This document shows, in pieces, positions 8,570-34,000 of a stretch of DNA of 64,000 nucleotides. Every line of letters begins with the position of its first letter. Position 1 is the stretch's first letter. The translations under genes and the position numbers were made by a program. Source of the DNA: Bartonella tribocorum CIP 105476 (GTDB lineage: Bacteria; Pseudomonadota; Alphaproteobacteria; Rhizobiales; Rhizobiaceae); contig NC_010161.1 of the NCBI RefSeq assembly GCF_000196435.1, positions 186,001-250,000 of the forward strand, in the 5' to 3' direction. The notes beneath the pieces are model-generated. The model saw only the letters and a list, made by a program, of their open reading frames with translations. It did no database searches and was not told where the DNA came from.

Positions 8570-8777
8570 GATATGGGGTGCATAACCCCATTATCTGTGG
8601 ATAACTTTATCTCTCTGTTTTCTCATATTATCTCAATTAAACTCATAAATTATCACATCAGAAATTATATGATAAAATATTGTTTTCTATAAATAAAATA
8701 CCTTCAAAAATAAACCAAAATGTGCTTAATAAATAGGCATGATTTGGTTCTATTTTTTATTATGAAAGGATTTTAGA

Positions 8778-8978: not shown

Positions 8979-8983
8979 AAAAA

Positions 8984-9059: not shown

Positions 9060-9075
9060 TGTTATAGGATTTAAA

Positions 9076-10644: not shown

Positions 10645-10670
10645 AGTCATTGTAATCTTTTGTTATCCTT

Positions 10671-10732
10671 AAAACCTTCAAAGATCTTATCGTACCAACA
10701 AAGGGTTTACGTAGTATCTTTGAGGGTTTTTG
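10671..10732 (+). terminator. Terminator-like stem-loop after the DUF3987 gene
   Basis: AAAACCTTCAAAGAT (10671-10685) pairs with ATCTTTGAGGGTTTT (10716-10730) with one G-T wobble, followed by TGTTTT. The loop is about 30 bases. It lies 27 bases after the stop codon and is placed as a terminator. Confidence 0.6.
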
Positions 10733-10808
10733 TTTTATCATTTTTTAAAGAAGAGACATAAAGAGGTTCTTTTAAATCTTGTGTCTAAAGATATCCAAAA
10801 CACAACCT

Positions 10809-10973
10809 CTATGAGTTTTGAAGGGGTTTTGAGTTTTGAGGGTTGCTGCTATTATGTAAAAAAACGATAAAAAATAAAAACATTATATTTCAATGTGTTA
10901 ATATTTTATAGACCTTAAAAAAACAACCTATATTGATAACACAACCTATAAATTCAACCAATAATATACGTTT
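10809..10973 (+). repeat. Left arm of the inverted repeat flanking the restriction gene
   Basis: This stretch reappears reverse-complemented at about 16926-17090 with only a handful of differences by eye. It starts near tatgagttttgaaggggt and ends near caaccaataatata. It is non-coding. Together the arms enclose the single-chain restriction-modification gene and about 0.7 kb of flanking DNA. Confidence 0.8.
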
Positions 10974-11313
10974 TGAGGGGGTTTTGACGGTTTTTACACC
11001 TTCAAAACCTATAAGAAAAATTCGTAATAAAACTTATCAAAATACTCATTCTGATATCTTAAAGGACATAAGTGCATTTGTCTTGATTAACCCGTGAAAC
11101 GAATAGCAAATTTTACTACTTTGCTGATCTTATTCCATGCCAAGGGCTGTGGATAAATAGCCTTTTAAAAACCCTTTTTGAAAAAAAATTATCCGTTTTT
11201 ATGCATTTTTCTGCATTTTTTCTCAATTCGTTCAAAATGGATTTAATAAGCTTCATTTTGATTCTTTTGAAAAGAATTAACCCTCTCATACCAAAACGGA
11301 GCTCTGTTATAAT

Positions 11314-14300: not shown

Positions 14301-16278
14301 GCTTGAAGAGAAGAACCTGCTACAGGAATTATTTAAAGAAAACAGTGAATATTTAGAGCATCAAAAGAAACTGGATATCAAAGTTATCTTTGGTAATCCT
14401 CCTTATTCTTTTGGACAAAAGAGTGCTAATGATAATAATCCGAATACCTCTTATTTTATATTAGATAATCGTATTCGTAAAAAATATATATCGAATTCAA
14501 CAAAAATAATAAATCGAAATAAACTTTATGATAGCTATATACGAGCAATTTGCTGGGCAAGCGACCGCATAAAAGAGCGTGGTGTGATTGGTTTTGTCAC
14601 GAACGCGGGGTTTATCAGTGGTCATGCTATGGATGGTTTACGCAAATGTCTCGTTGAGGAATTTAGCAGCCTTTATATTTTCCATTTACGTGGTAATCAA
14701 CGAACCTCTGGAGAACTTTCTCGCAAAGAAGGTGGAAAAATTTTTGGTGAAGGCTCTCGAGCCCCTATTGCTATCTCTATTCTCGTAAAAAATCCAAATG
14801 CACAGCAGCATGGTAAGATATATTTTCGTGATATTGGAGATTATCTCAATAGAGAAGAAAAGCTCACGATAATTGAAAAATTTAGGAGCATTGATGGCAT
14901 TACACGGAGCAAAGAAGGTTGGCAAATAATTACACCAGATAAGCATGGGGATTGGCTTAGTCAACGTGATGACAGTTTTAAAGCATTTTTAGCCATAGGT
15001 GATAAGAAAGGTAATGATAAAAAGCTATTTGAAAATTTTTCGTGTGGTATCGTAACGAGTCGTGATGCTTGGACATATAATGCAAGCCATAAAGCTTTAA
15101 TACAAAATATGAGTGCTATGATCACTTTTTATAACAGTGAAGTAGAAAGTTTTAAAGATACCTGTCCTCATACTGACCGTAAAACACGTAATAAAACTGT
15201 AAACAATTTCATTAATATTGATGCTACAAAAATCAGTTGGAGTACTACTCTCAAACAAGAATTGGTAAGAAGCAAATTTTCCAAATTTGAGAATAATTGC
15301 CTTATTCAAAGCCTTTATCGCCCTTTTACACGACAGTGGCTCTATTATAATCGAACCTTTAATGAATCAGTTTTTCAAATGCCGCATATATTTCCTATGG
15401 GACAAGCAGTTGAAAATAAAGTAATACACGTTACCGGCATAGGGTCAATGAAAGACTTTTCTGTATTTATGAGTAAGACTGTGCCTGATTTTAAGGTAAT
15501 AGAGAATGGTCAATGCTTTCCACGCTATATTTACGAAGACACTACGGTTTCAAAAAGTAAAAGTGAAAAACAATCCCATTTATTTACAGAAGAAAGTACA
15601 ACGGCTGGTTTACAGAGGCGTGATGCCATTACTGATGAAGGTCTAGATCATTTTAAAGCGGCTTATCCTAATGAAAAAATCACTAAAGATGATCTATTCT
15701 ATTATGTTTACGGTTTACTTCATTCAAAAGATTATCGCTCTCGTTATGCTAATAACCTTTCTAAAGAACTGCCTCGTATCCCTTGTGTAAAGAGTGCTGA
15801 TGATTTTTGGAAGTTTGTGACAGCAGGGCGTGAACTGGGTCATTTGCACGTAAACTATGAAACTGTAGAGCCGTATCCAGTAACCTTTAAAAAAGGTAAT
15901 CCAAAAGTTACAGAGATCTCTAATCCCGAAAAATTCTATTATGTGACTGAAATGAAATTCGCAAAAATTAAGAATAGTAAGGAAAAGGATAAATCAACAG
16001 TTATTTATAATAGCAATATTACCATAACAGATATCCCTCTTGAAGCTTATAAGTATATCGTCAATGGAAAACCCGCTCTTGAATGGGTTATGGGGCGTCA
16101 ATGTGTAAAGACTGATAAAAAGAGTGGCATTGTTAATGATGCTAATCGCTATGCTGTTGAAACCGTTGGCAACCCTGCCTACCCTCTAGAATTGTTTCAA
16201 AGGGTTATTACGGTAAGTTTAGAGACAATCAAAATTGTTAAGAATTTACCAAAATTAGAAATTAGAGAAACTGAATAA
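11314..16278 (+). CDS. Single-polypeptide restriction-modification enzyme (type ISP-like)
   Basis: A 1,654-residue enzyme combining cleavage, translocation, methylation and target recognition. Residues about 60-110 hold an Mrr-like nuclease core (GIDLVA, then AIQCKCY). A superfamily 2 helicase follows: Walker A MACGTGKTF (about 205), CDEAHRTTG (about 337), YMTATP, and motif VI QAVGRIMRRA (about 593). After a helical coupler comes an N6-adenine methylase with SAM motif DPFTGTGTF (about 923) and catalytic NPPY (about 1028). The remaining 500 residues are a probable target-recognition domain. This order matches the LlaGI/LlaBIII type ISP enzymes, which methylate one strand and cut after head-to-head translocation. 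No separate specificity or methylase gene is present, as expected. All motifs are intact. CGGAG lies 12 bases before the ATG. Confidence 0.93.
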   Translation: MLQSLKSDHEHVTLRSLLEYYRQQAKSPRELGTLFENLVMVYLSEDPLQKQEYEKVQTYLEWAKEHDEDGRDIGIDLVATIRDQGGYAAIQCKCYDASHIIKKEDIDSFIAASGKKIFTRRILVDSTESNWSDNANNTCDGQEVRIQQINLFDLENSQIDWGAYKEQGQAVLKEKSKKKLLDHQIEALERVCEGLQEADRGKLIMACGTGKTFTSLKIAETIAGQGKRVLFLVPSLALMSQTIREWTLDTEIPLRSFAVCSDTQVGKRRKGKHDDESGLDASDLVLPATTDSQELARKANKTSLDVMTVVFSTYHSIQVISDAQKEYDLPEFDLIICDEAHRTTGVVLGTDKHESEFIKVHDNSIIRGKKRLYMTATPKIFADSAKKQAHEMNGILASMDDEALYGKNLYTYTFSKAVKNELLVPYKIIILGVNEEEVSESIQHLMTDENYELTLDDKTKIIGCYQALSKIDLKVDLSDDPNPMRRALAFCKDIKTSERIRDTFNSQEIQKELYNLHKLYKETPPLQCTFAHIDGTQSAKKRNEALDWLKEDAGEHVCRVLTNVRCLSEGVDVPALDAIMFLHPRKSQVDVIQAVGRIMRRAKGKKRGYIILPVGVPAGISAEEALKYNKRYSVVWQVINALLAHDENFEITLNQMILGQDVSDVLEISALKSMTAVEDKIYVYEKPESAGLEIGKAAYEPQKYIHSVTGRLPFYKEFPNALKTLLAKKFTLADYWGIWAGNVAEIAQNHITHLQNLLADENSEAFHAFDAFHKELKNNLNSEIKQEEALEMLGQHLVTRPVFEALFDGNEFVQNNAISQAMEKILAELDKTNIKQVSKELQEFYDSVKFRASGITSPQARQNLIIKLYEDFFTKAFKKTTDRLGIVYTPVEVVDFIIHSVDDVLRNEFGKSLGSRGVSILDPFTGTGTFITRLLQSNLIKPEDMEYKFRHDIHANEIVLLAYYIAAINIESTYHSLMKGEYIPFKHIGLTDTFRMLEEKNLLQELFKENSEYLEHQKKLDIKVIFGNPPYSFGQKSANDNNPNTSYFILDNRIRKKYISNSTKIINRNKLYDSYIRAICWASDRIKERGVIGFVTNAGFISGHAMDGLRKCLVEEFSSLYIFHLRGNQRTSGELSRKEGGKIFGEGSRAPIAISILVKNPNAQQHGKIYFRDIGDYLNREEKLTIIEKFRSIDGITRSKEGWQIITPDKHGDWLSQRDDSFKAFLAIGDKKGNDKKLFENFSCGIVTSRDAWTYNASHKALIQNMSAMITFYNSEVESFKDTCPHTDRKTRNKTVNNFINIDATKISWSTTLKQELVRSKFSKFENNCLIQSLYRPFTRQWLYYNRTFNESVFQMPHIFPMGQAVENKVIHVTGIGSMKDFSVFMSKTVPDFKVIENGQCFPRYIYEDTTVSKSKSEKQSHLFTEESTTAGLQRRDAITDEGLDHFKAAYPNEKITKDDLFYYVYGLLHSKDYRSRYANNLSKELPRIPCVKSADDFWKFVTAGRELGHLHVNYETVEPYPVTFKKGNPKVTEISNPEKFYYVTEMKFAKIKNSKEKDKSTVIYNSNITITDIPLEAYKYIVNGKPALEWVMGRQCVKTDKKSGIVNDANRYAVETVGNPAYPLELFQRVITVSLETIKIVKNLPKLEIRETE

Positions 16279-16599
16279 CTTATAAAGCATGCTCACATAA
16301 TGGTTATGATAAACGCATAAGGGGTATAGAGCTTATAACCATAATCTATACCTCTTTTGTGAAGTTGATTAGATACAATCCTAATATGCGTTATTCTAAA
16401 AAGAAAAAACTTGCACTTTTAGATACTCTTATTTGGATTGCTTTAAGATTTTTAAGAAATCCCATCTTAAATAGAGTTAGATTTTTTTACATTGCCTTTA
16501 AGAGATTATACCGTAATCTAAAATGAGTGCTTTATTGTTCTCAAAAGCTTTGTTTAAAGAGAGTTATATATATTCATTTTACTTATAGGTTTTGTCGGT

Positions 16600-17310
16600 T
16601 CTTAAAACCCCCAAAACCCCTACAAAACCCCTTTTTATATATATTATAGATTGTATTTACGGATTGTATTTAATATAGGTTGTTTCTTTAAAACATTAAC
16701 ATATTGAAATATAATAACTTTTATTTCTAATTAAAAAAATAAAATAATACCTATAAAAAGCACCCCCAAAACTCATAACCTAATGATCTTGATAGCATCT
16801 CTTATGAGTTACAAGCTATCTTTTTAAAAGCTTTAAAGGGTCATATGCTTTTCATAAGACACGTGTTAATCACTCACTAAAATGATCACTTTTGTCGGTT
16901 CAATTTACTGACAGATAACTGACAAATATATATTATTGGTTGAATTTAGAGGTTGTGTTATCAATATGGGTTGTTTTTTTAAGGTCTATAAAATCTTAAC
17001 ATATTGAAATATAATGTTTTTACTTTTTATCGTTTTTTTTACATAATAGCAGCAACCCTCAAAACTCAAAACCCCGTCAAAACTCATAACTATAATGATC
17101 TTGATAGCATCTCTTATGAGTTACAAGCTATCTTTTGAAAAGCTTTAAAGGATCACATGATTTTCATAAAGCACGTTGTAATCATTCTCTAAAATCATAA
17201 GGTTATCATTCAAAAGAACTGATAAAAATTCATAAAAGGGATTTTGATAACGTAATCAGTTTTTAATTTCATACGCTTTTCATAAGACACGTGTTAATCA
17301 CTCACTAAAA
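16600..17310 (+). repeat. Imperfect direct repeats downstream of the restriction gene
   Basis: Unit 1 (about 16600-16885) and unit 2 (about 16921-17200) share, in order: a gggttgttt-like block, aacatattgaaatataat, caaaactcataac, atgatcttgatagcatctc, and agttacaagctatctttt. A tail word, cttttcataagacacgtgtt, occurs at about 16850 and again at about 17275, with a degenerate version at about 17160. Unit 1 is more diverged in the middle. The repeats are non-coding and may come from repeated insertion or duplication of an element end. Confidence 0.7.
16926..17090 (-). repeat. Right arm of the inverted repeat flanking the restriction gene
   Basis: This is the reverse complement of 10809-10973, about 165 bases with a few substitutions. 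It includes the words tattattggttgaattta, ttgtgttatcaatat, ttaaggtctataaaat, and acataatagcagcaaccctc. Confidence 0.8.
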
Positions 17311-18017
17311 ATATAATTTTATCTTTTAAAAAGAACTAATCAAAATAACAAAAGCCTATTAAAAGGGACTTTGCTAATCTCTATAATTATCAATCTCTCT
17401 TTAGATATTTTCATAACAGTCTATAAATCGTAATTATCCTATTTATCGTTTCTCTTATGAAAATGAAAAATGATGCCATGGCTATAAAGCATATAACAGC
17501 TATAAAGAATGCATAAAAACAGTAGCTTTGTTTGAATAAAGCAAAAATGCAAATGAATGCATTGGTTATAAGAGCGCGGTGCCTATTAAGATAGTTCAAA
17601 TGATAAATGCGTTATAAACAAAATTCACAAAAAAATTAAAATTCATTTAGTGAAAAAAACTGATAGTTTATAAAGATAAAAATACGCATTATGAGAGCGT
17701 TTCTAAATATTATAAATGTATAGATTCAAAAAACAACGCAATCGTTTTATAAAGCCCATAATATAGCTTTAAAAGCACATAAATATAAAAGAAGCAATTC
17801 ATAAGCACATGATATTATCAATACATAATGTATCTAAAAAAATACAAAAAATATCAAAAAAATAAAATATTAATTGACAATAAATACGTATTTTGTTATA
17901 TAAATAATCAAGTGATGAAAAACACTTTAAACAGTAAGCGGATAGGTTACGAAACAATCTTTCCAAAGCTTTTAAAACTGACTATCTTTTATGCTTTAAT
18001 TAGCATATATGATGATT

Positions 18018-18044
18018 TTGTCGGGTGTGGTCACACCATACAAT
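18018..18044 (+). promoter_or_regulatory. Putative promoter with embedded operator palindrome
   Basis: A 14-base palindrome GGTGTGgtCACACC (18024-18037) sits between a -35-like TTGTCG (18018-18023) and a -10-like TACAAT (18039-18044), spacing 15. A further GTGTGAC half-site follows at 18061. The position suggests repressor control of the hexapeptide-repeat genes. The cognate regulator is unknown. Confidence 0.5.
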
Positions 18045-18073
18045 ACTCTTTATGAGAAAAGTGTGACGACGGA

Positions 18074-18142
18074 CTTACTGCCGTGTTTTTCAACGCCCGG
18101 CTCCCTTATAGGGTTGTCAATGAAAAACGTATAATCAGTAAG
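18074..18142 (+). promoter_or_regulatory. Structured 5' leader (nested stem-loops) of the hexapeptide-repeat genes
   Basis: Three nested pairings stack towards one centre: CTTACTG (18074-18080) with CAGTAAG (18136-18142); GTTTTTCA (18085-18092) with TGAAAAAC (18121-18128); and an inner CCC-ttata-GGG (18103-18113) extended by a CAAC/GTTG pairing. The outer stem ends eight bases before the ATG at 18151, overlapping the likely ribosome binding site (AAGG). The fold could therefore gate translation. No match to a known riboswitch class is claimed. Confidence 0.5.
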
Positions 18143-18150
18143 GTTTAAAT

Positions 18151-18810
18151 ATGAAAAATATCTCAAAAAACACCCCCATTAATAAGAAAAAAACATCTAA
18201 AAAATATGAGTTTACTGGCGAAATGGATTTTGTGACTGGTCTCATATTATACCGTATACGTGCTTTAAGAGATTTTGGGGATGTCAAAGCGGGCGATCTT
18301 GGGGGGTATATTGAAAACGAAAGTAACTTATCTCACAAAGGCAATTGCTGGGTGTATGACAAAGCGCGCGTCTTTCAAAATGCAAGGGTTTCAGGCAATG
18401 CTAAAGTAAAAAGCTTTTTTGTTGACGTTTGTGGTAATGCAAGAATTTATGGTAATGCTATTTTTGAAGGCATGTTATTAAAGGACAATGCAAAGCTTTA
18501 TGGCAATGCTCATGTTAGCAATGCCGTTGTAATTGAAGGTAATGCTAAAATTTATGATAACGCCCGCGTCACTAATCATGCTCATATTTGTGATGGCTCG
18601 CGTGTTTTTGATGATGCCGTGGTTTGTGGCGCTCTTATCTCTGGCGATTCTTATGTTCATAGCGCCGCCTCTTTAACTGCTGATGATCATATTTGGGATG
18701 AGGCATATCCAGAATTTGGGAGTGAAGATGATTATTACCGTCATGAATATTATGCTGATTGTGAGGGGTATTATGACGATGATAACGAATATGAAAATGA
18801 TGCTGCGTAA
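18151..18810 (+). CDS. Hexapeptide-repeat (left-handed beta-helix) protein, copy 1
   Basis: A 219-residue protein of unknown function. After a variable start comes a cap shared by all three neighbouring copies: KKYEFTG, then YRIRALRDFGDVKAGDLGGYIE, then ESNLSHKGNCWVYDKA (about 25-75). From about 75 to 175 run imperfect six-residue turns of the type GNARVY/GNAHVS/DNARVT, the signature of a left-handed beta-helix. The C-terminus is distinctive, strongly acidic and tyrosine-rich (DDYYRHEYYADCEGYYDDD). There is no signal peptide or membrane segment, so it is probably cytoplasmic. The repeats resemble those of acetyltransferases, but no catalytic His pattern was identified, so an enzymatic role is not claimed. 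It is the first gene after the operator and structured leader. Confidence 0.8.
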   Translation: MKNISKNTPINKKKTSKKYEFTGEMDFVTGLILYRIRALRDFGDVKAGDLGGYIENESNLSHKGNCWVYDKARVFQNARVSGNAKVKSFFVDVCGNARIYGNAIFEGMLLKDNAKLYGNAHVSNAVVIEGNAKIYDNARVTNHAHICDGSRVFDDAVVCGALISGDSYVHSAASLTADDHIWDEAYPEFGSEDDYYRHEYYADCEGYYDDDNEYENDAA

Positions 18811-18814
18811 ATAA

Positions 18815-18845
18815 CGCGCGGGCGCGGCGGGGGCGCCCCTCTTTA
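18815..18845 (+). terminator. GC-rich hairpin between hexapeptide copies 1 and 2
   Basis: GGGCGC (18820-18825) pairs with GCGCCC (18833-18838), followed by CTCTTT. The stretch is almost pure G/C in a very AT-rich neighbourhood. Its 20-base core (18818-18837) recurs exactly after copy 2. It is likely a terminator or attenuator. Confidence 0.6.
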
Positions 18846-18892
18846 AACATCTCATTTTAAAATTTATCAAATATAAACTTAGGGAGTTACCT

Positions 18893-19486
18893 ATGTCCAC
18901 TATAACTGTATCTAAAAAATATGAATTGACTAATGAAAATCACACTTTTGAAGGGATTACTGTACACCGCATTCGTGCTTTAAGAGATTTTGATGATGTT
19001 AAGGCGGGGGCATTAGGTGGTTTTATTGAAAATGAAAGCAATCTCTCTCATGATGGCAATTGCTGGGTTTATGATGATGCTCTTGTGTTTAAAAATGGTC
19101 ACGTTTATGAAAACGCAAGGGTTTTTGGCAAGGCTGTCGCTTGTGGTCATATCTATGGTCATGCCCGCGTTTATGAGAATGCTATCGCTGCTGGCTATAT
19201 TTATGATAATGCGCATGTTTATGGCAATGCCGTTGTTTCTGATAATTCCCGTGTCTATGGCAATGCTCATGTGTATGGCAAGGCTATTATTTATGATAAT
19301 GCCTATGTTTATGACAATGCTAGGGTTTATGAAAACGCGCGTATAGCAAATGACGTGCATATTTATGAAAATGCTCATATCCATGGCATTGCTGTTATTC
19401 GTGAAAATGTCGGCGGGTCTACTAAAATTAAAACCTATACTGAACGTCTCTCTCCTTATGGCGAGTTAGAAATTGTCTGGGTTTAA
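18893..19486 (+). CDS. Hexapeptide-repeat (left-handed beta-helix) protein, copy 2
   Basis: A 197-residue paralogue of its neighbours. The cap is KKYELTNENHTFEG, HRIRALRDFDDVKAGALGGF, then ESNLSHDGNCWVYDDA. It is followed by some 18 regular turns such as YENARVFGKAVACGHIYGHARV and VYGNAVVSDNSRVYGNAHVYG (about 60-175). The tail KTYTERLSPYGELEIVWV is unlike that of copy 1. AGGGAG precedes the ATG. The repeats are so regular at DNA level that the opposite strand is also open; those antisense frames are artefacts. Function unknown; the protein is probably soluble. Confidence 0.8.
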   Translation: MSTITVSKKYELTNENHTFEGITVHRIRALRDFDDVKAGALGGFIENESNLSHDGNCWVYDDALVFKNGHVYENARVFGKAVACGHIYGHARVYENAIAAGYIYDNAHVYGNAVVSDNSRVYGNAHVYGKAIIYDNAYVYDNARVYENARIANDVHIYENAHIHGIAVIRENVGGSTKIKTYTERLSPYGELEIVWV

Positions 19487-19494
19487 TCAATAAA

Positions 19495-19526
19495 GCAGCG
19501 GCGGGCGCGGCGGGGGCGCCTGCTTT
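19495..19526 (+). terminator. GC-rich hairpin between hexapeptide copies 2 and 3
   Basis: It carries the same 20-base G/C core (19501-19520) as the hairpin after copy 1. An outer GCAG/CTGC pairing closes it and TTTC follows. It is likely a terminator or attenuator duplicated together with the gene. Confidence 0.6.
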
Positions 19527-19591
19527 CAAAATAAATTTTCCATTTCAAATTTTATCAACTGTTTATCACATTAGATTGTGAGGGTACTCCT

Positions 19592-20371
19592 ATGTGCAAA
19601 AAATACGAATTAACCAGCGAAATCAAAAAAATCAAACATGCTCTTACGCGAAATATCACAAGCCTTTATCGCATTCGGGCTTTAAGAGATTTTGATGATA
19701 TAAAAGCGGGTGCTTTAGGCGGTTTTATCGAAAAGGAAGTCAACCTATCCCATGATGGCAATTGCTGGGTCTATGATGATGCTTGTATCTATGGTCATGC
19801 CCGTGTTTATGATGATGCAAAAATACGGCATTATTCGCAAGTCTGTGGTCTCGTTTATGGCAATGCTGAGGTCTATGGCAAGGCTTTTGTCTCTCAATAT
19901 GCAAAGATTTATGATCAGGCTTGTGTTTATGGGAGTGCTCATGTGTATGGCAATGTGTATGGCAATGCTCATGTGAGTGGTGCTGCCCGCGTTCTTGCTG
20001 ATGCTCATATTTATGACCATGCCCATGTTTCTTATGATGCTACGGTTTTTAGTTATGCACGCGTCTATGGTCATGCTAGGGTTTGTGGCTCTGCTTGTAT
20101 TTATAGCCATGCGAAAATTTATAATTATGCTGTGATTAATGGTCGTGCAAAGATTTATGGCAAGGTCTATGGCAATGCGCGCGTGGGGGGCTCTTGTGAG
20201 GTTTATGGCTCTGTCTATGGCAATGCAAAAATCTTACATTGTGCAACAATCTGGGGGCGTGCTTATGGCAATGCAACAATCAATACAAAAAGCAAAGCAA
20301 AGTTGGTTCCCAAAAATTGTGAGGTTTATCAAAGCGATAATGTCGTTAAGATTATTGATAAAACAGAATAA
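19592..20371 (+). CDS. Hexapeptide-repeat (left-handed beta-helix) protein, copy 3
   Basis: A 259-residue paralogue, the longest of the three. The same cap occurs (KKYELTSE, YRIRALRDFDDIKAGALGGF, VNLSHDGNCWVYDDA). About 28 turns follow, including VYGNAEVYGKAFVSQYAKIYD and VYGNVYGNAHVSGAARV. In places the period slips to a bare VYGN, as if turns had been gained or lost by slippage. GAGGG lies before the ATG. The tail (KAKLVPKNCEVYQSDNVVKIIDK) closes the helix. No signal peptide. Function unknown. Confidence 0.8.
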   Translation: MCKKYELTSEIKKIKHALTRNITSLYRIRALRDFDDIKAGALGGFIEKEVNLSHDGNCWVYDDACIYGHARVYDDAKIRHYSQVCGLVYGNAEVYGKAFVSQYAKIYDQACVYGSAHVYGNVYGNAHVSGAARVLADAHIYDHAHVSYDATVFSYARVYGHARVCGSACIYSHAKIYNYAVINGRAKIYGKVYGNARVGGSCEVYGSVYGNAKILHCATIWGRAYGNATINTKSKAKLVPKNCEVYQSDNVVKIIDKTE

Positions 20372-21946
20372 AAATAGGCATGGGGTGCCTTCTTGATAGC
20401 TATAAACGTATCATAAAAGAGAGAATTCATAAAAGAAAGCCGTGCCAACTGATATGACGCGGCTTTCAAATGTCTACCCTTATGAATCATTCCAAATGGA
20501 GTAATGAATTCATATATACAAAACGTATTATATTGCAAGCGCTCTATTGAGATATGAAAACTTATCAAAAGGAATGTAAATGATGCGTATGATCTTTAAT
20601 CACTCTTTTGAATGAGAAGCCTATAAACGCTTTTCGTTGCCATTAAATATATCAATCATAATGTCTTTAACTTAAAGAGATTCATTGAAAACAAAGCCCA
20701 TGATCATGATGCTTCTTTAAAACATTTTAAAACACTAAGCTCAAAATTGAGTTGAGTGAATTTCAAATAACGCATTTTCTAAAATCAAAACATATTAAAA
20801 CGTTTGGTAGCTTTATCAATTCAATCAAAAGAAAATGCCTATTAGACTAATATCTTTTTTAAAAACGTTCTTTTTACATTTACAAGCGTTAATTTTTCAA
20901 AACAAGCTCTCATAAGACAATAAACAACTGCTTTTATCAAATGGAAGGTTTTAAAAATTATTATAAACATCCGTTTCAAACGTTTAAACATTCATTTAGA
21001 AAGGCTTTCATAATAAGCGTATTTTAAACAAAGCTTCTTTGCAAATTAATCGCTCTATTTGGCTAGCAAAATTAAGTAAATCCTGTGCCTTATGATGTTA
21101 CAACGGTTTTGAATTTTACTTGCTTATCTTTGTCTAAAATAGATGCCCTCAAATTTGAGGAGATCTCATTTGGTTTCATATTTTAAAACGATAACTTTTA
21201 AAACGTTTTTTATACCATGTCTAAGGTATATAGTATTCTACTTCTATGGCATTATGCGCCTCCATTTTTTTATGGAAGCGAATATAGTTCTGTTCTAAAA
21301 ACTAGTCTGCAATCTATTCATTAAAAGGCTTTTCATTTCATAAGATATAAAAGACCTCTTTATCGTTTTCTAAACTTTTAGAAAGCGTTTAAAAGCGATC
21401 TTGTCCTTAATCCTTTTATGCAATCTTTATAAATTAAACCTATAAGCTTATGAATGCTTCAAACAGTTAATTTCTTTAATGCCATTTTAAAGGTTTTTCC
21501 CAATTTGGGGAAAAATTATATGATCTGTATTTTCTATAAATGCGTATCTTTTGATACAATTTACCTTATAACAGTTTCAAACGATTACCCTCTTATAGAA
21601 TGATCTAATATTGCTATAACACTCTTTAGATTTTGCGCTCGCCAATTTTGGCGAACGTTAATTTGCAATTAACAATCCAATCTTTAAAATAAGAAGTAAT
21701 CTTTAAAACGTATGTTATCGATAATTCCAAACGATTAAATTTTAAAACAATGTGATTTGTGCTGTGATAAAAACGTATCATAAAATTTATGAACTGTTAT
21801 GAATGATATCGGCTTTTCATTTCATTTGAACGTTTACATGCGTTATAATATTTACATCATGATTTGCTTTTTATGATCTATTCATACATAGCAATCTTAT
21901 ATAAAAAATAGTCAAATGAATCACGTATAAAAGGATGGATTCCTAA
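20372..21946. other. Gene desert upstream of the giant adhesin
   Basis: About 1.6 kb, very AT-rich, without a supported gene. A stem-loop at 20435-20467 (GAAAGCCG with CGGCTTTC) has its T-rich side on the minus strand. Remnants of the adhesin's original upstream region could lie here, but none could be recognised. Confidence 0.5.
20435..20467. terminator. Stem-loop downstream of the hexapeptide-repeat genes
   Basis: An 8-bp perfect stem, GAAAGCCG (20435-20442) with CGGCTTTC (20460-20467). Flanking T tracts are better on the minus strand (CTTTCTTTTATG), so direction is uncertain. Confidence 0.45.
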
Positions 21947-22069
21947 GTGGATTCATATAAAATAATTACACTCAACATATTGACTTTATTGTGTTTTTAT
22001 TTATAATGTGTATTCTTATTTGGTTATAAGGCGGAGGTCAATAATGCTACCTCTGTTGCTGTAGGTCAT
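21947..22069 (+). pseudogene. Signal-peptide remnant of the giant adhesin, interrupted by a stop codon
   Basis: Upstream of the open frame and in the same reading frame, a GTG at 21947 begins MDSYKIITLNILTLLCFYL, then TAA at 22004-22006, then CVFLFGYKAEVNNATSVAVGH, which joins the adhesin head without a break. The segment has a Lys and then a hydrophobic run, as in a signal peptide. An AAGGA lies 11 bases before the GTG. Without the stop this would be the natural N-terminus, so the gene is probably inactivated, or depends on readthrough or recombination with another copy. Confidence 0.6.
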
Positions 22070-25000
22070 TTGGCGCTCGCTGAAGGCAAAAAAAGTATTG
22101 CAATAGGTGGTGAAGGTAGATGGGAAGATAACCCAATTCCGCCTGAGGGGCGTACCATAGCACAAGGTGAAGAATCGATTGCTATTGGACGTCGTGCTAA
22201 AGCGATTAATGATCAAACTCTAGCTATAGGTTCTCATGCACAGGTGACGGGGAATAGAAGTATTGCTTTAGGTTATGATGCGCTGTCCTCAAAAGAGAAT
22301 AGTATTGCTATAGGTTACATGTCTCACGCTTTGGGGAAAAGCAGTGTCGCAATAGGTGGCGAATATAATGCAGGTAAGGAAAACGATTATACAACTGCTA
22401 AGAGTGATTATTCAACAGCTGTAGGTGCTGTTTCTAAAGCTTTAGAATATGGTTCGACTGCTCTTGGTCACCGTGCATATGCATTTGCTAAAAATGCTAT
22501 TTCTATAGGTTTCTATTCAGAAGCAAATGGAGTTGGAAGTATTGCTTTAGGTTCCGATTCTAATGTAAAGGTTGATGGTGGTGTTGCTATCGGAAACAAC
22601 TCTGTATCCAATAGGGCTGCTGGTGTTTTTGGTTATGCTCCTTCGTTAAAGGGTGAGGTTGCAACAAATGCTACAGCTCAGTGGAAAAGTACATCAGGTG
22701 CAGTGAGTGTTGGTGATTTTGGTCAGAACATAACGCGACAAATTATAGGTGTAGCAGCTGGTAGCGACGTGACTGATGCAGCAAATGTAGGGCAGTTAAA
22801 AGATTTAAAAACATTTGTGAAAGAAAATGGCTGGAAACTGTCTGTTGGCGGTAAAAATGGCAAGACTGTTCTTATGGACAGTGACGTAGATTTTTCCACT
22901 GGAAGTACAAACCTTAAGATTACCAAAGGCAATGAAGATAATAAAGTAAAGTTTGATCTTGCTCAAGACGTTACGTTAACAAGCTTAAAAGCAGGTACAA
23001 ATACCTTAGATGCAACAGGCTTAATAATTACGGGTGGACCTAAGATAACAACCGGTGGCATTGATGCTGGGAATAAAAAGATCACAAGCATTAAAGATGG
23101 AACACTTTCAGCAGATTCACATGAAGCGGTAAGTGGTTCGCAGCTTTTTGCAGCAAATAATGAAATTGCTAATGTAAGAGACAGTATTCTTGTTAAGCAA
23201 GTAACAGAGATGTCTTTATCGCGCAGTCTTCGTGATAGTGGAGCCGGTTTGATCACCATTGGTAGAGGCACTGGTGGCAATGAAATCAGTATCTTGAACA
23301 AAGGGAATGCAGGGCGGAAACTTTCCGGTCTCTTGGGTGGAGATCTCAGTGCAAGTTCAGACGAAGCCGTCAATGGTGGTCAGCTAAATAGTACAGCTAC
23401 CCACGTAGCGCGGTATTTGGGTGGTGGTATTGACTTTGGAAATGGTCAATGGAATGAAGCAAAATTCAAAGTTAAAACTTTGAACTCAGAGAACAATGAA
23501 GTTGAAGAAAAAACCTATGATAGTGTATCAGAAGCTTTAGAAGGTATAGGTCTTTCTTTTACAGAAATTGGTAACAAAATTAACAATGAAGTTAACAATA
23601 TAGTCAATGACAGCCTAGTTAAGCAGGATGACACCACAAAGCAGATTACTATAGGTGGTGCGAATGAAGGCAGTACAATCAGTATAGCAAATAAAGATGG
23701 CGCCTCACGGACTATTTCTGGTGTTGCGGCTGGTACTGCGGATACTGATGCGGTGAATTTTTCACAACTGCAAAAAGTTGAAAAAGATGTAAAAGAACAA
23801 GTAGCAGCCAGTAGCTTTGTTAAACAGAATTCTGAAACGAGACACATCACGATAGGTAAAGAAACAGATGGTGATAAAATCGATGTTGCCAATAACAAAA
23901 ACGAACAGCGTACGCTTACCGGTATAAAGGATGGGGCACTCTCAGCAGATTCACATGAAGCTGTAAGTGGTTCACAGCTTTTTACGACCAATCAAAATGT
24001 TACGACTGTAACAAGTGGTCTCAAAACAGCCTCTGAGAATATAGCCAAATATTTAGGTGGAGGAGCTAGTTATAAAGAAGGCGCATGGACCGCTCCCACT
24101 TTTAAAATAAAGTCAGTTAACACGGATGGTGAGGAAAAAGAAGCGACTTATTCTGATGTAGCAAGTGCTTTGAGTGGAGTTGGTAGTTCTATCACGAATG
24201 TTCAGAATAAGTTGACTGAACAGGTTAATAATGTGGTTAACAAAGTTGAAAGCGAAAGCTTTGTTCAACAAGATAAAACAACGCATAATCTCACTATTGG
24301 AGCGAAAGTAGCAGGCGGTGAAATCAACATTGCCAATAAGGACAAGGGCGACCGGACGCTATCTGGTTTGAAGGCAGCAACCAAGGATAATGAAGCAGTT
24401 AACAAAGGTCAGCTTGATACGAATATCAAGAAAGTAGAAGATAAATTAGCAGAAGCTGTCGGTAATGTTACACAACAAGTTCAAGGTGATGCTTTATTGT
24501 GGAGCGATACCGATAACGCATTTGTTGCTGATCATAAGAAGGATGGGGCGAAAACAAAGAGTAAGATTACCCATCTTTCGGATGGAAATATTGCTTCTGG
24601 CTCTACAGATGCCGTTACGGGTGGTCAACTTTATTCGATGAACGAGCAGCTTGCGACCTATTTTGGCGGTGAAGCAGGTTATAATGAAAAAGGAGAATGG
24701 AAAGCACCTACCTTTAAAGTCAAAACTGTTCAAGAAGATGGTAACTCTGAAGAGAAAGCGTATCAAAATGTAGCAGAAGCTTTGGCAGGAGTTGGTACAT
24801 CTTTTACAAATGTTCAGAATAAAATTACCAATGAGATAACCAACCAAATTAATCATCTTCAATCAGAAGATTCAGCGGTTGTTCATTATGATAAAGATGA
24901 TAAAAATGGCACCATTAATTATGCGAGTATCACTTTAGGTGGTAAAGATAAAACTCCTACGGCCCTCCATAATATTGCTGATGGTGCGATTTCTTCAGAA

Positions 25001-28000
25001 TCTCATGATGCAATCAATGGTAAGCAGATTAACAAAATCGGTGAGGATATTGCAAAATTCCTCGGTGGTGAAGCATCATTTAAAAACGGTGTCCTTAAAA
25101 GTCCCACCTATAAATTATCTTACATTGCCAAAGATGGTGTTGTAACAGAAAGTTCTCTTGATGGTGTTGGAACAGCGCTTGCAGGACTTGATAGTAATAT
25201 CAAGAATGTGAATGATCGTATTAAAGAAGTCTCAGAAGGGGTTGCACAGGATTCTTTAAATTGGAGTAATGCTGAGGGTGCTTTTGTCGCTCAGCATGAA
25301 AAAGAAGGTGAAAAAACAAATAGTAAAATTAAGTATCTTGCTGCTGGAGAGATTTCTGCTGCTTCCACAGAAGCAATTAATGGTTCACAGCTTTTCGAAA
25401 CAAATAATAATGTTGCTACTTATTTTGGTGGTGGCGCTGGTTATGATGAAAAAGGCAACTGGAAAGCACCTACCTTTAAAGTTAAAACTGTTACAGATAA
25501 TGGTGAAGCTGAAGAGCAAGAGTATAAGAATGTAGCGGAAGCTTTTGAAGGTGTTGGTACATCTATTACGAATGTTCAGAATAAAGTTACCAACGATATA
25601 ACGAATAAATTCAACGATTTTACTCAAAATATAACGAATATTACACAACAAGTTCAAGGCGATGCTTTGTTGTGGAATGAGGATGAGGGGGCATTTGTTG
25701 CTGATCATGGTAAAGATGACAAAAAGGCAAATAGTAAGCTTACGCATCTTTTGGATGGCACGATTTCAAAAGACTCGACAGATGCTATTACGGGTAAACA
25801 ACTCTATTCTTTGAGTGATAATGTTGCGAAATCCTTCGGTGATGGTGCCGGCTATGATGCGGAAGGCAACTGGAAAACGCCTACCTTTAAGGTTAAAACA
25901 GTTAAGGATAATGGTGAATCTGAAGAGCAAGAGTATAAGAATGTAGCAGCTGCTTTTGAAGGTGTAGGTGCATCTTTTACGAACATCAAAAAAGATATTA
26001 CCAATCAGATTAATCATCTTCAGTCAGAAGATTCGGCTGTTGTTCATTATGATAAAAAGGACGAAGGTGAAACTGATTATGCGAGTATCACTTTAGGTGG
26101 TAAAGATAAGACCTCCACGGCTCTCCGCAATGTTGCAGATGGTAAGATTGCTAAGGACTCACATGATGCAATCACTGGCGGTCAGATTAATAAGATTGGT
26201 GAGGATATTACTAAGTATTTAGGTGGAGAATCGTCCTTTAAAGATGGAGCTCTTACAGGTCCCAGTTATAACTTATCTGATGTTTCTAAAGACGGTCAGA
26301 TTACGGATAAGTCCTTTACTGATGTTGGCAAAGCCTTTGAAGGTCTTGATAGTAATATCAAGAATGTTAATGATCGTATTAAAGAAGTCTCAGAAGGGGT
26401 TGCACAGGATTCTTTATCATGGAGTAAGGGTGATGGTGCCTTTAGTGCGCAGCATGGATCAGGAGATACGAAAGCTAATAGTAAGATTAAATTTCTTTCT
26501 GCGGGTGATGTTTCTGCAAACTCGACAGAAGCTATTAATGGTTCCCAGGTTTATTCTTTGAGTGATCAATTTGCTAAGTATTTAGATGTTAACGCTGGTT
26601 ATGATGCGAAAGGGGAATGGAAAGCCCCAAGCTTTACGGTTAATGCTGTTAAAGATGATGGTGTTACAATTGAAGAGAAGAAGTACGATACAGTAGCAGA
26701 AGCTTTGTCTGATGTTGGTAATTCATTCACGAATATTAAAAAAGATATTACGAATGTTGTCAGTGATAGTCTAGTAAAGTGGGATGAAGAGCAACAAGTA
26801 GTCAAGATTGGTGCAGAAAAACACGGTAATAAAATCACAATTTCTGATCAGGATAGTAAAGACAGAATCCTTTCAGGAGTTAAGGATGCAGAGCATAGTA
26901 ATGAAGCGGTTAACAAAGGTCAGCTTGATGATAATGTAACTAAGCTTTCGGACGAAATTGCAGATGTGCGTTCTGTTGCAGTTTTCTACGATGAAGAAGC
27001 AGAGCCAAAAGGTGGCAATCCCCTTATCAGATCAGCGCGTAAAGTTAATAAGACGAGTGTAACGTTTGGAGATCCCCAAACGGGCACAGTTGCATTGCAC
27101 AATGTTGGCAATGGTTCCATTTCTTCAGAATCACATGATGCGATCAATGGCTCTCAGCTTTTTGAGACCAATAAGAATGTTGCAACTTATTTAGGTGGAG
27201 GGGCTAAATATGAGAATGGCGCGTGGGTCGCACCAAGCTTTAAAGTTAAGACGGTTAATGAGGATGGTAGTAAGGTTGAAGAGACGAGCTATGATAATGT
27301 AGCGGCAGCTTTTGAAGGAGTTGGTAGTTCTTTCACGAATATTCATAAAGAACTTAAGAATGAGATTAGCCAAGTTGTAGGGAATAGTCTTGTTAAGCAG
27401 GACGATGCAGGTCTTATCACTATTGGTAAAGAAGTAGCAGGCAGTGAAATCAATGTCGCCAACAAAACTGGTGAAGAACGGACACTTTCTGGTGTTAAGG
27501 CGGCAACCAAGGATAATGAAGCGGTTAATAAGAAACAGCTTGAAGAACATTTGAAAGATCTGTCTAGCAGTCTTCAGTCAGATGAATCAGCAGTTGTCCA
27601 TTATGATAAAACAGGAGATAAAACAGATTATACGAGTGTGACTTTGGGGAAAGGTAAGGATTCTGCTCCTGTAGGTCTTCATAATGTTGCAGATGGTCAG
27701 ATTGCTGAGAGTTCTCATGATGCAATCAATGGCGGCCAGATTAATAAGATTGGTGAGGATATTGCTAAGTATTTAGGTGGAGAATCGTCCTTTAAAGATG
27801 GCACACTTACAGGTCCCAGTTATAAATTATCTGAAGTTACTAAAGACGGTCAGGTTACGGATAAGTCCTTTACTGATGTTGGCAAAGCCTTTGAAGGTCT
27901 TGATAGTAATATCAAGAATGTTAATGATCGTATTAAAGAAGTCTCAGAAGGGGTTGCACAGGATTCTTTATCATGGAGTAAGGGTGATGGTGCCTTTAGT

Positions 28001-31000
28001 GCGCAGCATGGATCAGGAGATACGAAAGCTAATAGTAAGATTAAATTTCTTTCTGCGGGTGATGTTTCTGCAAACTCGACAGAAGCTATTAATGGTTCCC
28101 AGGTTTATTCTTTGAGTGATCAATTTGCTAAGTATTTAGATGTTAACGCTGGTTATGATGCGAAAGGGGAATGGAAAGCCCCAAGCTTTACGGTTAATGC
28201 TGTTAAAGATGATGGTGTTACAATTGAAGAGAAGAAGTACGATACAGTAGCAGAAGCTTTGTCTGATGTTGGTAATTCATTCACGAATATTAAAAAAGAT
28301 ATTACGAATGTTGTCAGTGATAGTCTAGTAAAGTGGGATGAAGAGCAACAAGTAGTCAAGATTGGTGCAGAAAAACACGGTAATAAAATCACAATTTCTG
28401 ATCAGGATAGTAAAGACAGAATCCTTTCAGGGGTTAAGGATGCAGAGCATAGTAATGAAGCGGTTAACAAAGGTCAGCTTGATGATAATGTAACTAAGCT
28501 TTCGGACGAAATTGCAGATGTGCGTTCTGTTGCAGTTTTCTACGATGAAGAAGCAGAGCCAAAAGGTGGCAATCCCCTTATCAGATCAGCGCGTAAAGTT
28601 AATAAGACGAGTGTAACGTTTGGAGATCCCAAAACGGGCACAGTTGCATTGCACAATGTTGGCAATGGTTCCATTTCTTCAGAATCACATGATGCGATCA
28701 ATGGATCTCAGCTTTTTGAGACCAATAAGAATGTTGCAACTTATTTAGGTGGAGGGGCTAAATATGAGAATGGCGCGTGGGTCGCACCAAGCTTTAAAGT
28801 TAAGACGGTTAATGAGGATGGTAGTAAGGTTGAAGAGACGAGCTATGATAATGTAGCGGCAGCTTTTGAAGGAGTTGGTAGTTCTTTCACGAATATTCAT
28901 AAAGAACTTAAGAATGAGATTAGCCAAGTTGTAGGGAATAGTCTTGTTAAGCAGGACGATGCAGGTCTTATCACTATTGGTAAAGAAGTAGCAGGCAGTG
29001 AAATCAATGTCGCCAACAAAACTGGTGAAGAACGGACACTTTCTGGTGTTAAGGCGGCAACCAAGGATAATGAAGCGGTTAATAAGAAACAGCTTGAAGA
29101 ACATTTGAAAGATCTGTCTAGCAGTCTTCAGTCAGATGAATCAGCAGTTGTCCATTATGATAAAACAGGAGATAAAACAGATTATACGAGTGTGACTTTG
29201 GGGAAAGGTAAGGATTCTGCTCCTGTAGGTCTTCATAATGTTGCAGATGGTCAGATTGCTGAGAGTTCTCATGATGCAATCAATGGCGGCCAGATTAATA
29301 AGATTGGTGAGGATATTGCTAAGTATTTAGGTGGAGAATCGTCCTTTAAAGATGGCACACTTACAGGTCCCAGTTATAAATTATCTGAAGTTACTAAAGA
29401 CGGTCAGGTTACGGATAAGTCCTTTACTGATGTTGGCAAAGCCTTTGAAGGTCTTGATAGTAATATCAAGAATGTTAATGATCGTATTAAAGAAGTCTCA
29501 GAAGGGGTTGCACAGGATTCTTTATCATGGAGCAAGAGTGATGGAGCTTTTGTTGCCTTGCATGGGGAAAAAGAAGGAGAGAAGGTAAACAGCAAGATCA
29601 CGTCTCTTGCTGCTGGTTCTATAGCTTCAGGTTCGAGTGATGCGGTTACAGGGGGGCAGCTTTATACCTTGAATCAGACGTTAGCGACTTATTTAGGTGG
29701 TGGAGCAGGCTATAATGAGGAAGGCAAATGGAATGGACCGACCTTTAAAGTAAAAAGCTACAACGAAGATGGTGAGGAAGTTGAAGAAGAACGTGGCAGT
29801 GTTTCTGAGGCATTTGATCTGGTAAACCAATCTTTCACGGATCTTCACAAGGAAGTTAACAGCAAGATTAACCAAGTTTTAGGAGATAGTCTTGTTAAAC
29901 AAGATGAAACATCCAAACTTATCAACATTGGTAAAGAAGTAGAAGGTAGTGAAATCAATATAGCCAATAAAACTGGAGCTTATCGTACTCTTTCTGGTTT
30001 AAAGAAAGCAGAGAAGGGCGATGAAGCGGTTAATAAAACGCAGCTTGATGAGGAAACAGAGGCTCGTACTGCAGCTATTAATAAAGTTAATTCTACAGCA
30101 GTTTTTTACGATATAATAGAAGATGAAGATAGCGGCGATTCCCGTCAGAGATCGCCAGGTTTAAGCAAGAGGAGTGTTACATTTGGAGATGCAGATGCGG
30201 TTGCACTGCGGAATGTAGCAGCGGGTAAGATTGAAAAAGATTCTACGGAAGCTGTAACGGGTGGACAGGTTCATACACTCACTCATGATGTATCGAAGAT
30301 TTTAGGTGGAGGAGTTGGGTTTGAAAATGGTCAGTTGAGCAAAGATAAATTCACAGTTCAAGCTTTCAACTCCGAGAAAAATGCTGTTGAAGGAACAAGC
30401 TATGATAGTGTAGCAGATGCATTTGAAGGAGTTGGTAAATCTTTCACGAATGTTGTTACTAGTTTTAATAAAAAAGTAGATAACATTACGGAATCTGTTC
30501 AAGGTGATGCTTTGTTGTGGGATGATAAAGCAAAAGCGTTTGTAGCGTTGCATGGAAAAGGTGATGCACGAGCCAATAGCAAGATCACGTCTCTTGCCGC
30601 AGGAGATATTACTTCTGGTTCAACGGATGCAGTTAATGGTTCCCAGCTCCATAGTCTAGGAGAAGAAGTTTCAAAGTCTTTAGGAGGAGAAGCTAGCTAT
30701 AAAGATGGCGCATGGTCAGCGCCAAACTTTAAGATTAAAATTGTCAAAGAAGATGGACAGGAAGAAGACAAGAGTTATCCTGATGTAGCGGCAGCCTTTG
30801 CTGGTGTAGGTAGTTCTTTCACGAATATTCATAAAGAACTTAAGAATGAGATTAGCCAAGTTGTTAGTGATAGTCTTGTAAAGCAGGATAAAGAGAGCAA
30901 GGTTATTAAGATAGGCGCTGAAAAAGGTGGAACAAGCATTAACATTGCCAATAGTGGAGATGCTGCACGGGCTCTTTCTGGTGTAAAAGCAGGATCACTC

Positions 31001-34000
31001 ACAAAAGAATCGACGGATGCGATTAATGGTTCTCAGCTTTATAGCTTGAATCAGACGCTTGCGAGCTATTTTGGTGGTGGCGCTAAATATGAGAATGGCG
31101 CGTGGGTTGCACCAAGCTTTAAAGTTAAGACAGTCAATGAGGATGGTAGTAAGGTTGAAGAGAAGAGCTATGATGATGTAGCGGCAGCCTTTGCTGGTGT
31201 AGGTAGTTCTTTCAGTAATCTTCATAATGAGCTTAAGCATGAGATTAGCCAAGTTGTAGGAGACAGTCTTGTAAAGCAGGATGAGAAGACGCATGTTATT
31301 GCGGTTGGAGGAGAAAAGAGCGGAACGAAAGTTACATTAGCAAATGTTGATAATGCCGCTCGGACCCTTTTAGGAGTTAAATCAGGCGAGCTTTCAGAGA
31401 CATCGACAGAAGCTGTGAACGGTTCTCAACTTTTTGCGACCAATGAGCATGTCAGCAGTGTCTCTAAAGATTTGGAAATAGCAGCTACGGATATAGCTAA
31501 GACTTTAGGTGGAGGTGCAGAATATAAGGAAGGTAAATGGGTATCACCAAGCTTTAAGGTAAAAACCATCAATGAGGATGGTGAAGCTGGAGAAGAGGCT
31601 TATGCGAGTGTATCGGCAGCTTTTGAAGGAGTAGGTAGTTCTTTCACGAATATTAAGAATGAGCTTAAGAATGAGATTAGCCAAGTAGTGAGTGATAATC
31701 TTGTTAAGTTTGATGAGAAGAGCAGGGTTATCAAGATAGGCTCAGAGAAAGATGGCTCATCAATCACGTTAGGCAATAGTGAAGGTATGGCACGTAGTTT
31801 ATCAGGAGTTAAATCAGGGGTTGTTTCGGAAGAATCGACGGATGCGATTAATGGATCTCAGCTTTATACTTTGAATCAGACGCTTGCGACGTATTTTGGT
31901 GGTGGTGCTAAATATGAGAATGGGACTTGGATCGCTCCAAAGTTTGTAGTTAAGACCGTTAATAAAGAAGGTGATGCTGTTGAAGAGACGAGCTATGATA
32001 ATGTATCGGCAGCCTTTGCTGGTGTAGGTACGTCTTTTGAGAATCTCCAAAAGAAGGTTACTGAAAGCAACACGCAGGTTACTGAAAACATTAAGCAGAA
32101 CGCGTTGTTGTGGAGTGATAGTGACAAAGCGTTTGTAGCGCAGCATGGAGAGAAAGAAGGAGCAAAGACCAATAGTAAGATTAAGTATCTTTCCAATGGT
32201 GAGATTAGTTCTAGCTCAAGCGATGCAGTAGCAGGTAATCAGCTTCATGCTCTGGGTGAAGAAGTTTCAAGGACCTTAGGAGGTGAAGCCAAGTATGAGA
32301 ACGGCACTTGGACTTCTCCAAAGTTTACAGTTAAAACGGTGAATAAAGAAAGTAATGCTGTTGAAGAGACGAGCTATGATGATGTCGTTGCAGCCTTTGC
32401 TGGTGTAGGTACGTCTTTTGAGAATCTCCAAAAGAAGGTTACTGAAAGCAACACGCAGGTTACTGAAAATATTAAGCAGAATGCATTGTTGTGGAGTGAT
32501 AGTGACAAAGCGTTTGTAGCGCAGCATGGCGAGGGAGATGCGAAAACGAATAGCAAGATTAAGCATCTTTCCAATGGTGAGATTAGTGCTAGCTCAAGCG
32601 ATGCAGTAGCAGGTAATCAGCTTCATGCTCTGGGTGAAGAAGTTTCAAAGACCTTAGGAGGTAACGCCAAGTATGAGAATGGCACTTGGACTTCTCCAAA
32701 GTTTACAGTTAAAACGGTGAGGAAAGAAAGTGATGCTGTTGAAGAGACGAGCTATGATGATGTAGCGGCAGCCTTTGCTGGTGTAGGTACGTCTTTTGAG
32801 AATCTTCAAAAGAAGGTTACTGAAAGTAATACGCAGGTTACTGAAAACATTAAGCAGAATGCATTGTTGTGGAGTGATAGTGACAAAGCGTTTGTAGCGC
32901 AGCATGGCGAGGGAGATGCGAAAACGAATAGCAAGATTACGCATCTTTCGGATGGTAAGATTGCTTCTGGCTCGAGCGATGCGGTTACAGGTGGCCAACT
33001 TTATTCGATGAACGAGCAGCTTGCGTCTTATTTAGGTGGAGGATCTGGCTATGATGAGAAAGGCAAATGGACTGCGCCAAACTTTAAGGTTAAAACTGTC
33101 AAAGAAGATGGTAAGGAAGAAGATAAGAGTTATGGGAATGTAGCGGCAGCTTTTGAAGGAGTAGGTAGTTCTTTCACGAATATTAAGAATGATCTTAGTA
33201 ACCAGATTAATAATGCGATTACCAATGTTAAAGGGGAGAGCCTTGTTAAGTGGGATGAGGAGACACAGCATATTAATATTGGTGGAGAAAAAGATGATGC
33301 TACAATCAATATTGCCGATAAGAATAAGAATAATCGTATCCTTTCTGGTGTGAAGGCAGCTGAGAATGATAATGAAGCGGTCAACAAAGGTCAGCTTGAT
33401 CAAGGGATAGAAGATGTACGTTCAGTAGCGGTTCTTTATGATGAAGAAGTAGAGCCAAAAGGTGTCAATCCCCTTATCAGAACAGCGCGTAAAGTTAATA
33501 AAAACAGTGTGACTTTTGGAGATCCCAAAACGGGCACAGTTGCTTTGCACAATGTTGGCAATGGTATCGTTTCCTCTGATTCACATGATGCGATCAACGG
33601 TTCGCAACTTTTTGAGACCAATAAGACTGTTGCGTCTTATTTAGGTGGCGGTGCTCAGTATGAGGAAGGCAAATGGACAGGTCCGACCTTTAAGGTAAAA
33701 ACCTTCAAAGAAGATGGTAAGGAAGTTGAAGAAGAACGCGGCAGTGTTTCCGATGCCTTTGATCTTGTAAATCAATCCTTCACGGACCTTCATAATGAAG
33801 TTAACAGCAAGATTAACCAAGTAGTGAGTGATAATCTTGTTAAGTTTGATGAGAAGACAAATCTGATCAGGGTTGGCGGTGAAAAAGACGGCGCTAGCAT
33901 CAGTATTGCGGATAAGGGAAGCAAAGATAGAAGGCTATCTGGTTTGAAGGCAGCTGAGAATGATAATGAGGCAGTTAATAAAGGTCAGCTTGATGAGAGT

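What the first reader, a model, noticed from the sequence alone, without database searches (positions are those of the whole stretch)
21947..22070. Giant adhesin has a stop codon inside its apparent signal peptide
The 5,035-codon frame opens inside the head domain with no ATG and no ribosome binding site. In the same frame upstream a GTG start gives MDSYKIITLNILTLLCFYL, a TAA, then CVFLFGYKAEVNNATS running straight into the head. One base change would restore a hydrophobic leader. The remaining 15 kb has no stop, so loss is recent, or the locus is a silent donor for recombination with expressed adhesins, or the codon is read through.
Basis: partly seen in the sequence, partly recalled or inferred. 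Interest (0 to 1): 0.75.

Follow-up and report, generated by a model that had tools for sequence, protein, structure and literature searches.

The report
Phage DNA beheaded the only adhesin
The giant surface-adhesin gene of this Bartonella genome has lost its whole front end to a phage-related DNA block, and the supposed stop codon in a signal peptide lies in what looks like a phage promoter.

Summary
The letters are as reported: GTG 21947, TAA 22004-22006, then an open frame to 37177. But no signal peptide is interrupted. DNA up to about 22019 belongs to a dispersed phage-associated repeat; DNA homology to adhesins starts at 22020 in the 4 loci that reach furthest left. The TAA lies in the -10 box of a promoter-like site (TTGACT-16-TATAAT) whose spacing is kept in 21 of 25 repeat copies. 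CVFLFGYKAEV is the remnant of a head repeat that lies about 200 residues into intact relatives. A 14.8-kb phage-related island stands where the close relative G070 has an array of badA-type genes and the front of this one. The genome shows no leader match and one anchor, so no expressed partner for a silent donor. Best reading: recently 5'-truncated, non-exportable remnant. Two twists: the promoter points into the frame, and an IalB-like gene starts in an ATGA overlap with its stop, as in 13 of 13 relatives. Passages in print count one full-length badA in B. tribocorum and list BadA among its infection genes; an expression test is worthwhile.

The parts
4485..7227 (.). left flank, collinear with the close relative G070; holds tRNA-Ser at 4497-4586
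   Evidence: 95.9% identical to G070 C1 from 479.8 kb; collinearity stops at 7227; tRNA
7228..22019 (.). phage-related island that stands where G070 has other genes, an adhesin array and the 5' part of this adhesin gene
   Evidence: starts where collinearity with G070 ends; 7228-17950 has some match in 53 of 61 genus genomes, own included, several of them weak, and long 87-97% copies elsewhere in the own genome
7403..8569 (+). tyrosine integrase at left end of island
   Evidence: PF00589 and PF13356; phrog_1 integrase E 1.1e-35
9076..10194 (+). DUF3987, phage helicase-like
   Evidence: phrog_2373
11314..16278 (+). Type ISP restriction-modification enzyme
   Evidence: PF18135, PF22240, PF13156
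18151..20371 (+). three solenoid-repeat genes (18151-18810, 18893-19486, 19592-20371), part of the dispersed module
   Evidence: YdcK-type solenoid; 18893-19486 matches phrog_5070 (the only one of the three tested there); module copies
20372..22019 (+). tail of the dispersed module without a listed gene, ends at the junction
   Evidence: four other places in own genome, pieces of 82-98% identity; 28 hits (25 distinct) end between 21998 and 22023
21947..22006 (+). spurious leader frame (GTG to TAA) read by the first stage; lies wholly in the module tail
21980..22007 (+). sigma-70-type promoter-like site, TTGACT - 16 - TATAAT; the TAA 22004-22006 is inside the -10 box
   Evidence: 11 of 12 consensus letters; spacing kept in 21 of 25 distinct copies; activity untested
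22020..22023 (.). junction between phage module and adhesin, about 3-4 shared letters
   Evidence: DNA homology to adhesins begins at 22020 in 4 loci; module copy L152 equals the window from 21930 through 22020, differs at 22021 and departs after 22023
22020..37177 (+). 5'-truncated BadA/Vomp-type trimeric autotransporter adhesin: head repeats, stalk, anchor
   Evidence: YadA_head, YadA_stalk (18 stretches) and YadA_anchor; one open frame
36995..37162 (+). membrane anchor, the only one found in the genome
   Evidence: PF03895
37174..37776 (+). IalB-like gene whose ATG overlaps the adhesin stop (ATGA)
   Evidence: PF06776; ATGA overlap here and in 13 of 13 relatives

Best explanation
This is the remnant of a BadA/Vomp-type adhesin gene whose promoter, start, export leader and first 200 or so residues are gone. 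A phage-related island (integrase to solenoid genes, 7228-22019) sits where a close relative carries further badA-type genes. Its right-hand break joins phage-module DNA to the middle of a head repeat at 22020-22023 with 3-4 letters of shared sequence, as expected of an illegitimate deletion that took out the rest of the phage, the neighbouring adhesin genes and the front of this one. The break left the module's outward-facing promoter-like site just before the frame. The frame may be transcribed, but at best gives a leaderless polypeptide that cannot use the usual Sec and type Vc route. Shown: module identity, junction, conservation of the promoter-like site, missing leader, lack of other copies. 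Inferred: order of events, transcription, lack of export.
For: Module copies reach 21998-22023 and stop; DNA homology to adhesins starts at 22020 in L113, L035, L038 and L048. In relatives the frame runs 207-283 codons back from that place to the preceding stop (6 places, one cut by a contig end), and the leader match begins about 204 and 226 residues before it in G070 and G013. G070 is collinear up to 7227 and again at 36207-38769, with five leader matches between. Leader query: 0 matches in own genome against 5, 7, 4 and 7 in G070 (its source), G019, G017 and G013 at E up to 1. One anchor. Promoter-like site. Phage nature: integrase and helicase families in the island; head, connector, tail and endolysin families next to module copies L150, L154 and L158.
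Against: Passages in print count one full-length badA in B. tribocorum (PMC2697382) and name BadA among the loci needed for infection in the B. tribocorum rat model (PMC2883598; PMC3430587). The remaining frame has no stop and looks constrained, which also fits a gene still in use. No relative shows intermediate states, so the order insertion-then-deletion is not proven. A chimaeric assembly cannot be excluded without reads.
Confidence: 0.84

Rival explanations
1. Captured promoter and coupled operon: the leaderless frame is kept because transcription (and perhaps translation) from the phage promoter through it feeds the overlapping IalB-like gene; insertions in 'badA' would then act by polarity.
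For: Promoter-like site 21980-22007 points into the frame; ATGA overlap with the IalB-like gene in the window and in 13 of 13 relatives; constraint on the anchor region. No terminator-like site in 36900-38720, but only 0.9 were expected by chance, so this is weak.
Against: No convincing in-frame start near the promoter, so most of a 15-kb mRNA may be untranslated and subject to polarity; the IalB-like gene has ribosome-site-like letters of its own (by eye) and promoter-like sites of 9 of 12 letters lie nearby; four other IalB-like genes exist in the genome.
Confidence: 0.15
2. Assembly artefact: the sequence joins two parts wrongly and the strain has an intact array.
For: Module copies up to 98% identical occur elsewhere in the genome, and badA arrays are hard to assemble (unresolved sites in the B. 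grahamii badA region, PMC2697382 passage). A BadA hit in the rat screen would be natural.
Against: The junction shares only 3-4 letters, too few for a repeat collapse; both sides of the replaced stretch are collinear with G070; no leader match or second anchor in the 2-contig genome.
Confidence: 0.08
3. Signal peptide interrupted by a single stop, read through or recently lost.
For: A 19-codon hydrophobic frame precedes the stop in frame.
Against: That stretch is conserved repeat DNA with a conserved promoter-like site; leaders of the family in relatives are followed by about 200 residues before the equivalent place; the frame after the stop starts inside a head repeat.
Confidence: 0.02
4. Silent donor cassette for recombination with expressed adhesins.
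For: The frame is open; recombination events are said to affect BadA expression (PMC3430587 passage). Donation between cells is possible in principle.
Against: No other adhesin of the family was found in this genome.
Confidence: 0.04

Closest known systems
BadA / Vomp / Brp trimeric autotransporter adhesins of Bartonella
   Same: YadA-type head repeats, long stalk, C-terminal anchor, same chromosomal place as the array of G070
   Different: No leader, start codon or N-terminal head; a single remnant where G070 has five leader matches
fha-repeat type phage-related islands of rodent Bartonella (passages of PMC2697382)
   Same: Integrase and phage genes, dispersed copies (80-100% identical in that paper), clusters of three phage-like genes
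   Different: No fha/hec family among the 9 proteins scanned; equating the three solenoid genes with the three-gene clusters of that paper is my inference
5'-truncated pseudogenes made by deletion next to a prophage (general knowledge)
   Same: Sharp junction with short shared sequence, lost start
   Different: An outward promoter-like site is left before the frame, and 5056 codons are still open

Membership tests
BadA/Vomp trimeric autotransporter adhesin | YadA-like membrane anchor at C terminus | tested here: met
   PF03895, E 5.2e-13
BadA/Vomp trimeric autotransporter adhesin | YadA head repeats and coiled stalk | tested here: met
   PF05658 and PF05662
BadA/Vomp trimeric autotransporter adhesin | start codon with export leader | tested here: not met
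   no leader match in own genome, while the same query finds 5, 7, 4 and 7 places in four relatives; junction at 22020. The ESPR family search (no match) says little: the Bartonella rows carry no PF13018 either
BadA/Vomp trimeric autotransporter adhesin | surface display and adhesion | not testable with these tools
   needs protein work
Phage-related island | integrase at an end and phage-family genes | tested here: met
Phage-related island | attachment-site repeats at both ends | tested here: inconclusive
   no exact copy of 12 or more bases of the tRNA-Ser 3' end elsewhere in the window, apart from one 12-base match of the letters just behind it; repeats around 7228 itself were not searched, and the right end is lost if the deletion reading holds
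Sigma-70-type promoter | -35 and -10 hexamers 16-18 apart, conserved among copies | tested here: met
   11 of 12 letters (where 13 sites were found against 10.8 expected); 21 of 25 copies at spacing 16, at most 4 at any other spacing tried. Activity not tested
Interrupted signal peptide | leader homologous to the family's leader upstream of the stop | tested here: not met

The most novel reading that the evidence does not exclude
A phage promoter was captured by a beheaded adhesin, and the 15-kb leaderless frame has since been kept as the coupled front part of an operon that makes an IalB-like protein; the infection phenotype credited to BadA in this species would then belong to the gene behind it.
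Probability: 0.12. Interest if true: 0.6.

Novelty: new member of a known kind. Interest (0 to 1): 0.36.

Why it matters
By size the genome is that of B. tribocorum CIP 105476 (sizes recalled), used in the rat infection model. If its only badA-type gene lacks any export leader, statements that BadA acts in that model need checking, and the adhesin array of rodent Bartonella is shown to be open to removal beside phage-related islands. It also shows how T-rich promoter DNA can mimic a signal peptide in a stop-to-stop reading.

Tried and rejected
A leader elsewhere in the genome, moved by inversion at a module copy: rejected; the 248-residue N-terminal query matched only this gene's own head and the 80-residue leader query matched nothing. 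Island end in tRNA-Ser: no duplicate of the tRNA end found in the window. Decay of the frame: no sign; dN/dS 0.177-0.248 against 9 relatives, compared with 0.14-0.243 for G070 against 8 (4 of 13 relatives dropped because their match began late). The window-only changes there are few (0, 1, 5 by codon position), so this is weak. A near-identical full-length protein from another strain: 591 hits, of which the 120 listed show at most 62% identity; only the 1213 candidates sharing most words were scored. A hidden later leader: the most hydrophobic 15-residue stretches have a mean of 1.27 at most and look like repeated stalk pieces. Published note of this truncation: none seen in the listings; only open-licence papers are held, and of seven papers only passages were seen.

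Full report
What is there. GTG 21947 opens a 19-codon frame that ends at TAA 22004-22006; the same frame is then open to TGA 37175-37177. The protein has YadA-type head, stalk and anchor. The first in-frame candidate starts are TTG 22070, GTG 22244 and ATG 22319.

The stretch before the frame is not adhesin. Window 20372-22000 matches four other places of the same genome in pieces of 82-98% identity and belongs to a longer module, 18.0-22.0 kb, with three solenoid genes. The search with 20372-22300, which includes some head, matched 44 of 61 genus genomes. In one search the 28 module hits (25 distinct; three loci were held twice) end between 21998 and 22023. Genes near the end of other copies were scanned for 4 loci: L150, L154, L158 and L159 gave phage head, connector, tail sheath, tape measure, endolysin and transglycosylase families. 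In the reverse sense, the four adhesin loci that reach furthest left (five rows, one place held twice) start at 22020; other adhesin rows start at 22052 or later. Copy L152, from the same genome, equals the window from 21930 through 22020, differs at 22021 and departs after 22023. The junction is therefore 22020-22023.

Why it looked like a leader. The module ends with TTGACT, 16 bases, TATAAT at 21980-22007 (11 of 12; the scan found 13 promoter-like sites against 10.8 expected, so a scan hit alone means little). The test is conservation: in 25 distinct copies the second hexamer keeps at least 5 of 6 letters at spacing 16 in 21, and in at most 4 at any other spacing from 0 to 49. The first hexamer lies inside the stretch used to find the copies, so only the second is an independent test. 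The TAA is inside that second hexamer. T-rich letters give a hydrophobic reading. After the stop, CVFLFGYKAEV lines up with SVAVGYGAQV-like head repeats of homologues. There the frame runs 207-283 codons back to the preceding stop (one of 6 places cut by a contig end), and the leader match starts about 204 (G070) and 226 (G013) residues earlier.

How it arose. In the flanking genes behind the adhesin G070 is closest (96% over 38710-41900); in the genes before it G019 (92%) is slightly closer than G070 (91%). The contig length of G070 equals that given for Bartonella kosoyi proteins. G070 is collinear with the window at 4485-7227 and again at 36207-38769. Between them G070 has, by eye, a transporter-like and two regulator-like frames, and five leader matches in long adhesin frames. 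The window has the island instead: integrase, DUF3987, Type ISP restriction-modification enzyme, solenoid genes. The simplest course is island insertion followed by a deletion from the module end into the head of one adhesin gene; the order is inferred.

No partner in the genome. All five head matches of the own genome lie in this frame, one anchor was found, and the leader query gives nothing, while it finds 5, 7, 4 and 7 places in G070, G019, G017 and G013 (E up to 1; three of these 23 have E above 0.05). The ESPR family also gave nothing, but it is a poor test here, since the Bartonella proteins do not carry that family. In one search, 30 of 37 genus genomes, own included, have head matches and 7 have none.

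Age. Of all single-base changes in the frame 4.1% would make a stop; with none seen, neutral drift since the truncation is at most 0.0048-0.0057 substitutions per site (95%). The anchor region has dN/dS like that of intact pairs. Recent loss or continued use both fit.

What it may still do. The promoter-like site points into the frame. The IalB-like gene begins at 37174 inside the ATGA that ends the adhesin, and this overlap is kept in 13 of 13 relatives examined (the 13 are all other genomes with one match of at least 90% identity over nearly the whole flanking query; G078, in two pieces, was left out). No terminator-like site was found in 36900-38720, against 0.9 expected. Four other IalB-like genes exist in the genome. 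Transcription through the remnant could matter for the gene behind it; this is untested.

Literature seen. PMC2697382 (passages) gives badA as 5, 1, 2, 3, 3 in B. grahamii, B. tribocorum, B. henselae, B. quintana and B. bacilliformis, full-length genes only. PMC2883598 (passages) says that the screen in the B. tribocorum rat model found 98 essential loci, BadA and IalB among them; PMC3430587 (passages) says the like. The screen paper itself was not seen. PMC5387305 (passages) lists two sequenced B. tribocorum isolates of 2.62 Mb.

Noticed in passing
window 18000-22010; L150, L151, L152, L154, L158, L159: A roughly 4-kb module (three solenoid genes and 1.6 kb without listed genes) recurs in many Bartonella genomes beside different phage genes and nearly always ends at the same outward promoter-like site. 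In L154 it abuts a frame that matches only the second half of a tail-sheath family (from profile position 238 of 496), as if inserted into that gene; it behaves like a dispersible unit.
   Followed up: partly
window 22033-22064: A ribosome-site-like GGAGGT with ATG 22044 gives a six-codon frame out of step with the adhesin, ending just before TTG 22070.
   Followed up: partly
L165 7343-8930 (G070): Two helix-turn-helix-like frames (by eye) lie just upstream of the adhesin array in the relative; the island stands in their place here. In B. henselae Brt RNAs and Trp proteins control badA (PMC5387305, title and passages).
   Followed up: no
window 49516-49908: A second IalB-like gene in the same window (own genome has five in all).
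   Followed up: no
window 11314-16278: The stretch with the Type ISP restriction-modification gene has 88-92% relatives at three other places of the same genome.
   Followed up: no
G006 G007 G008 G012 G014 G018 G021: Seven of 37 genus genomes have no adhesin head match at E up to 0.001; they are also among the most distant in the flanking genes (67-71% identity).
   Followed up: no
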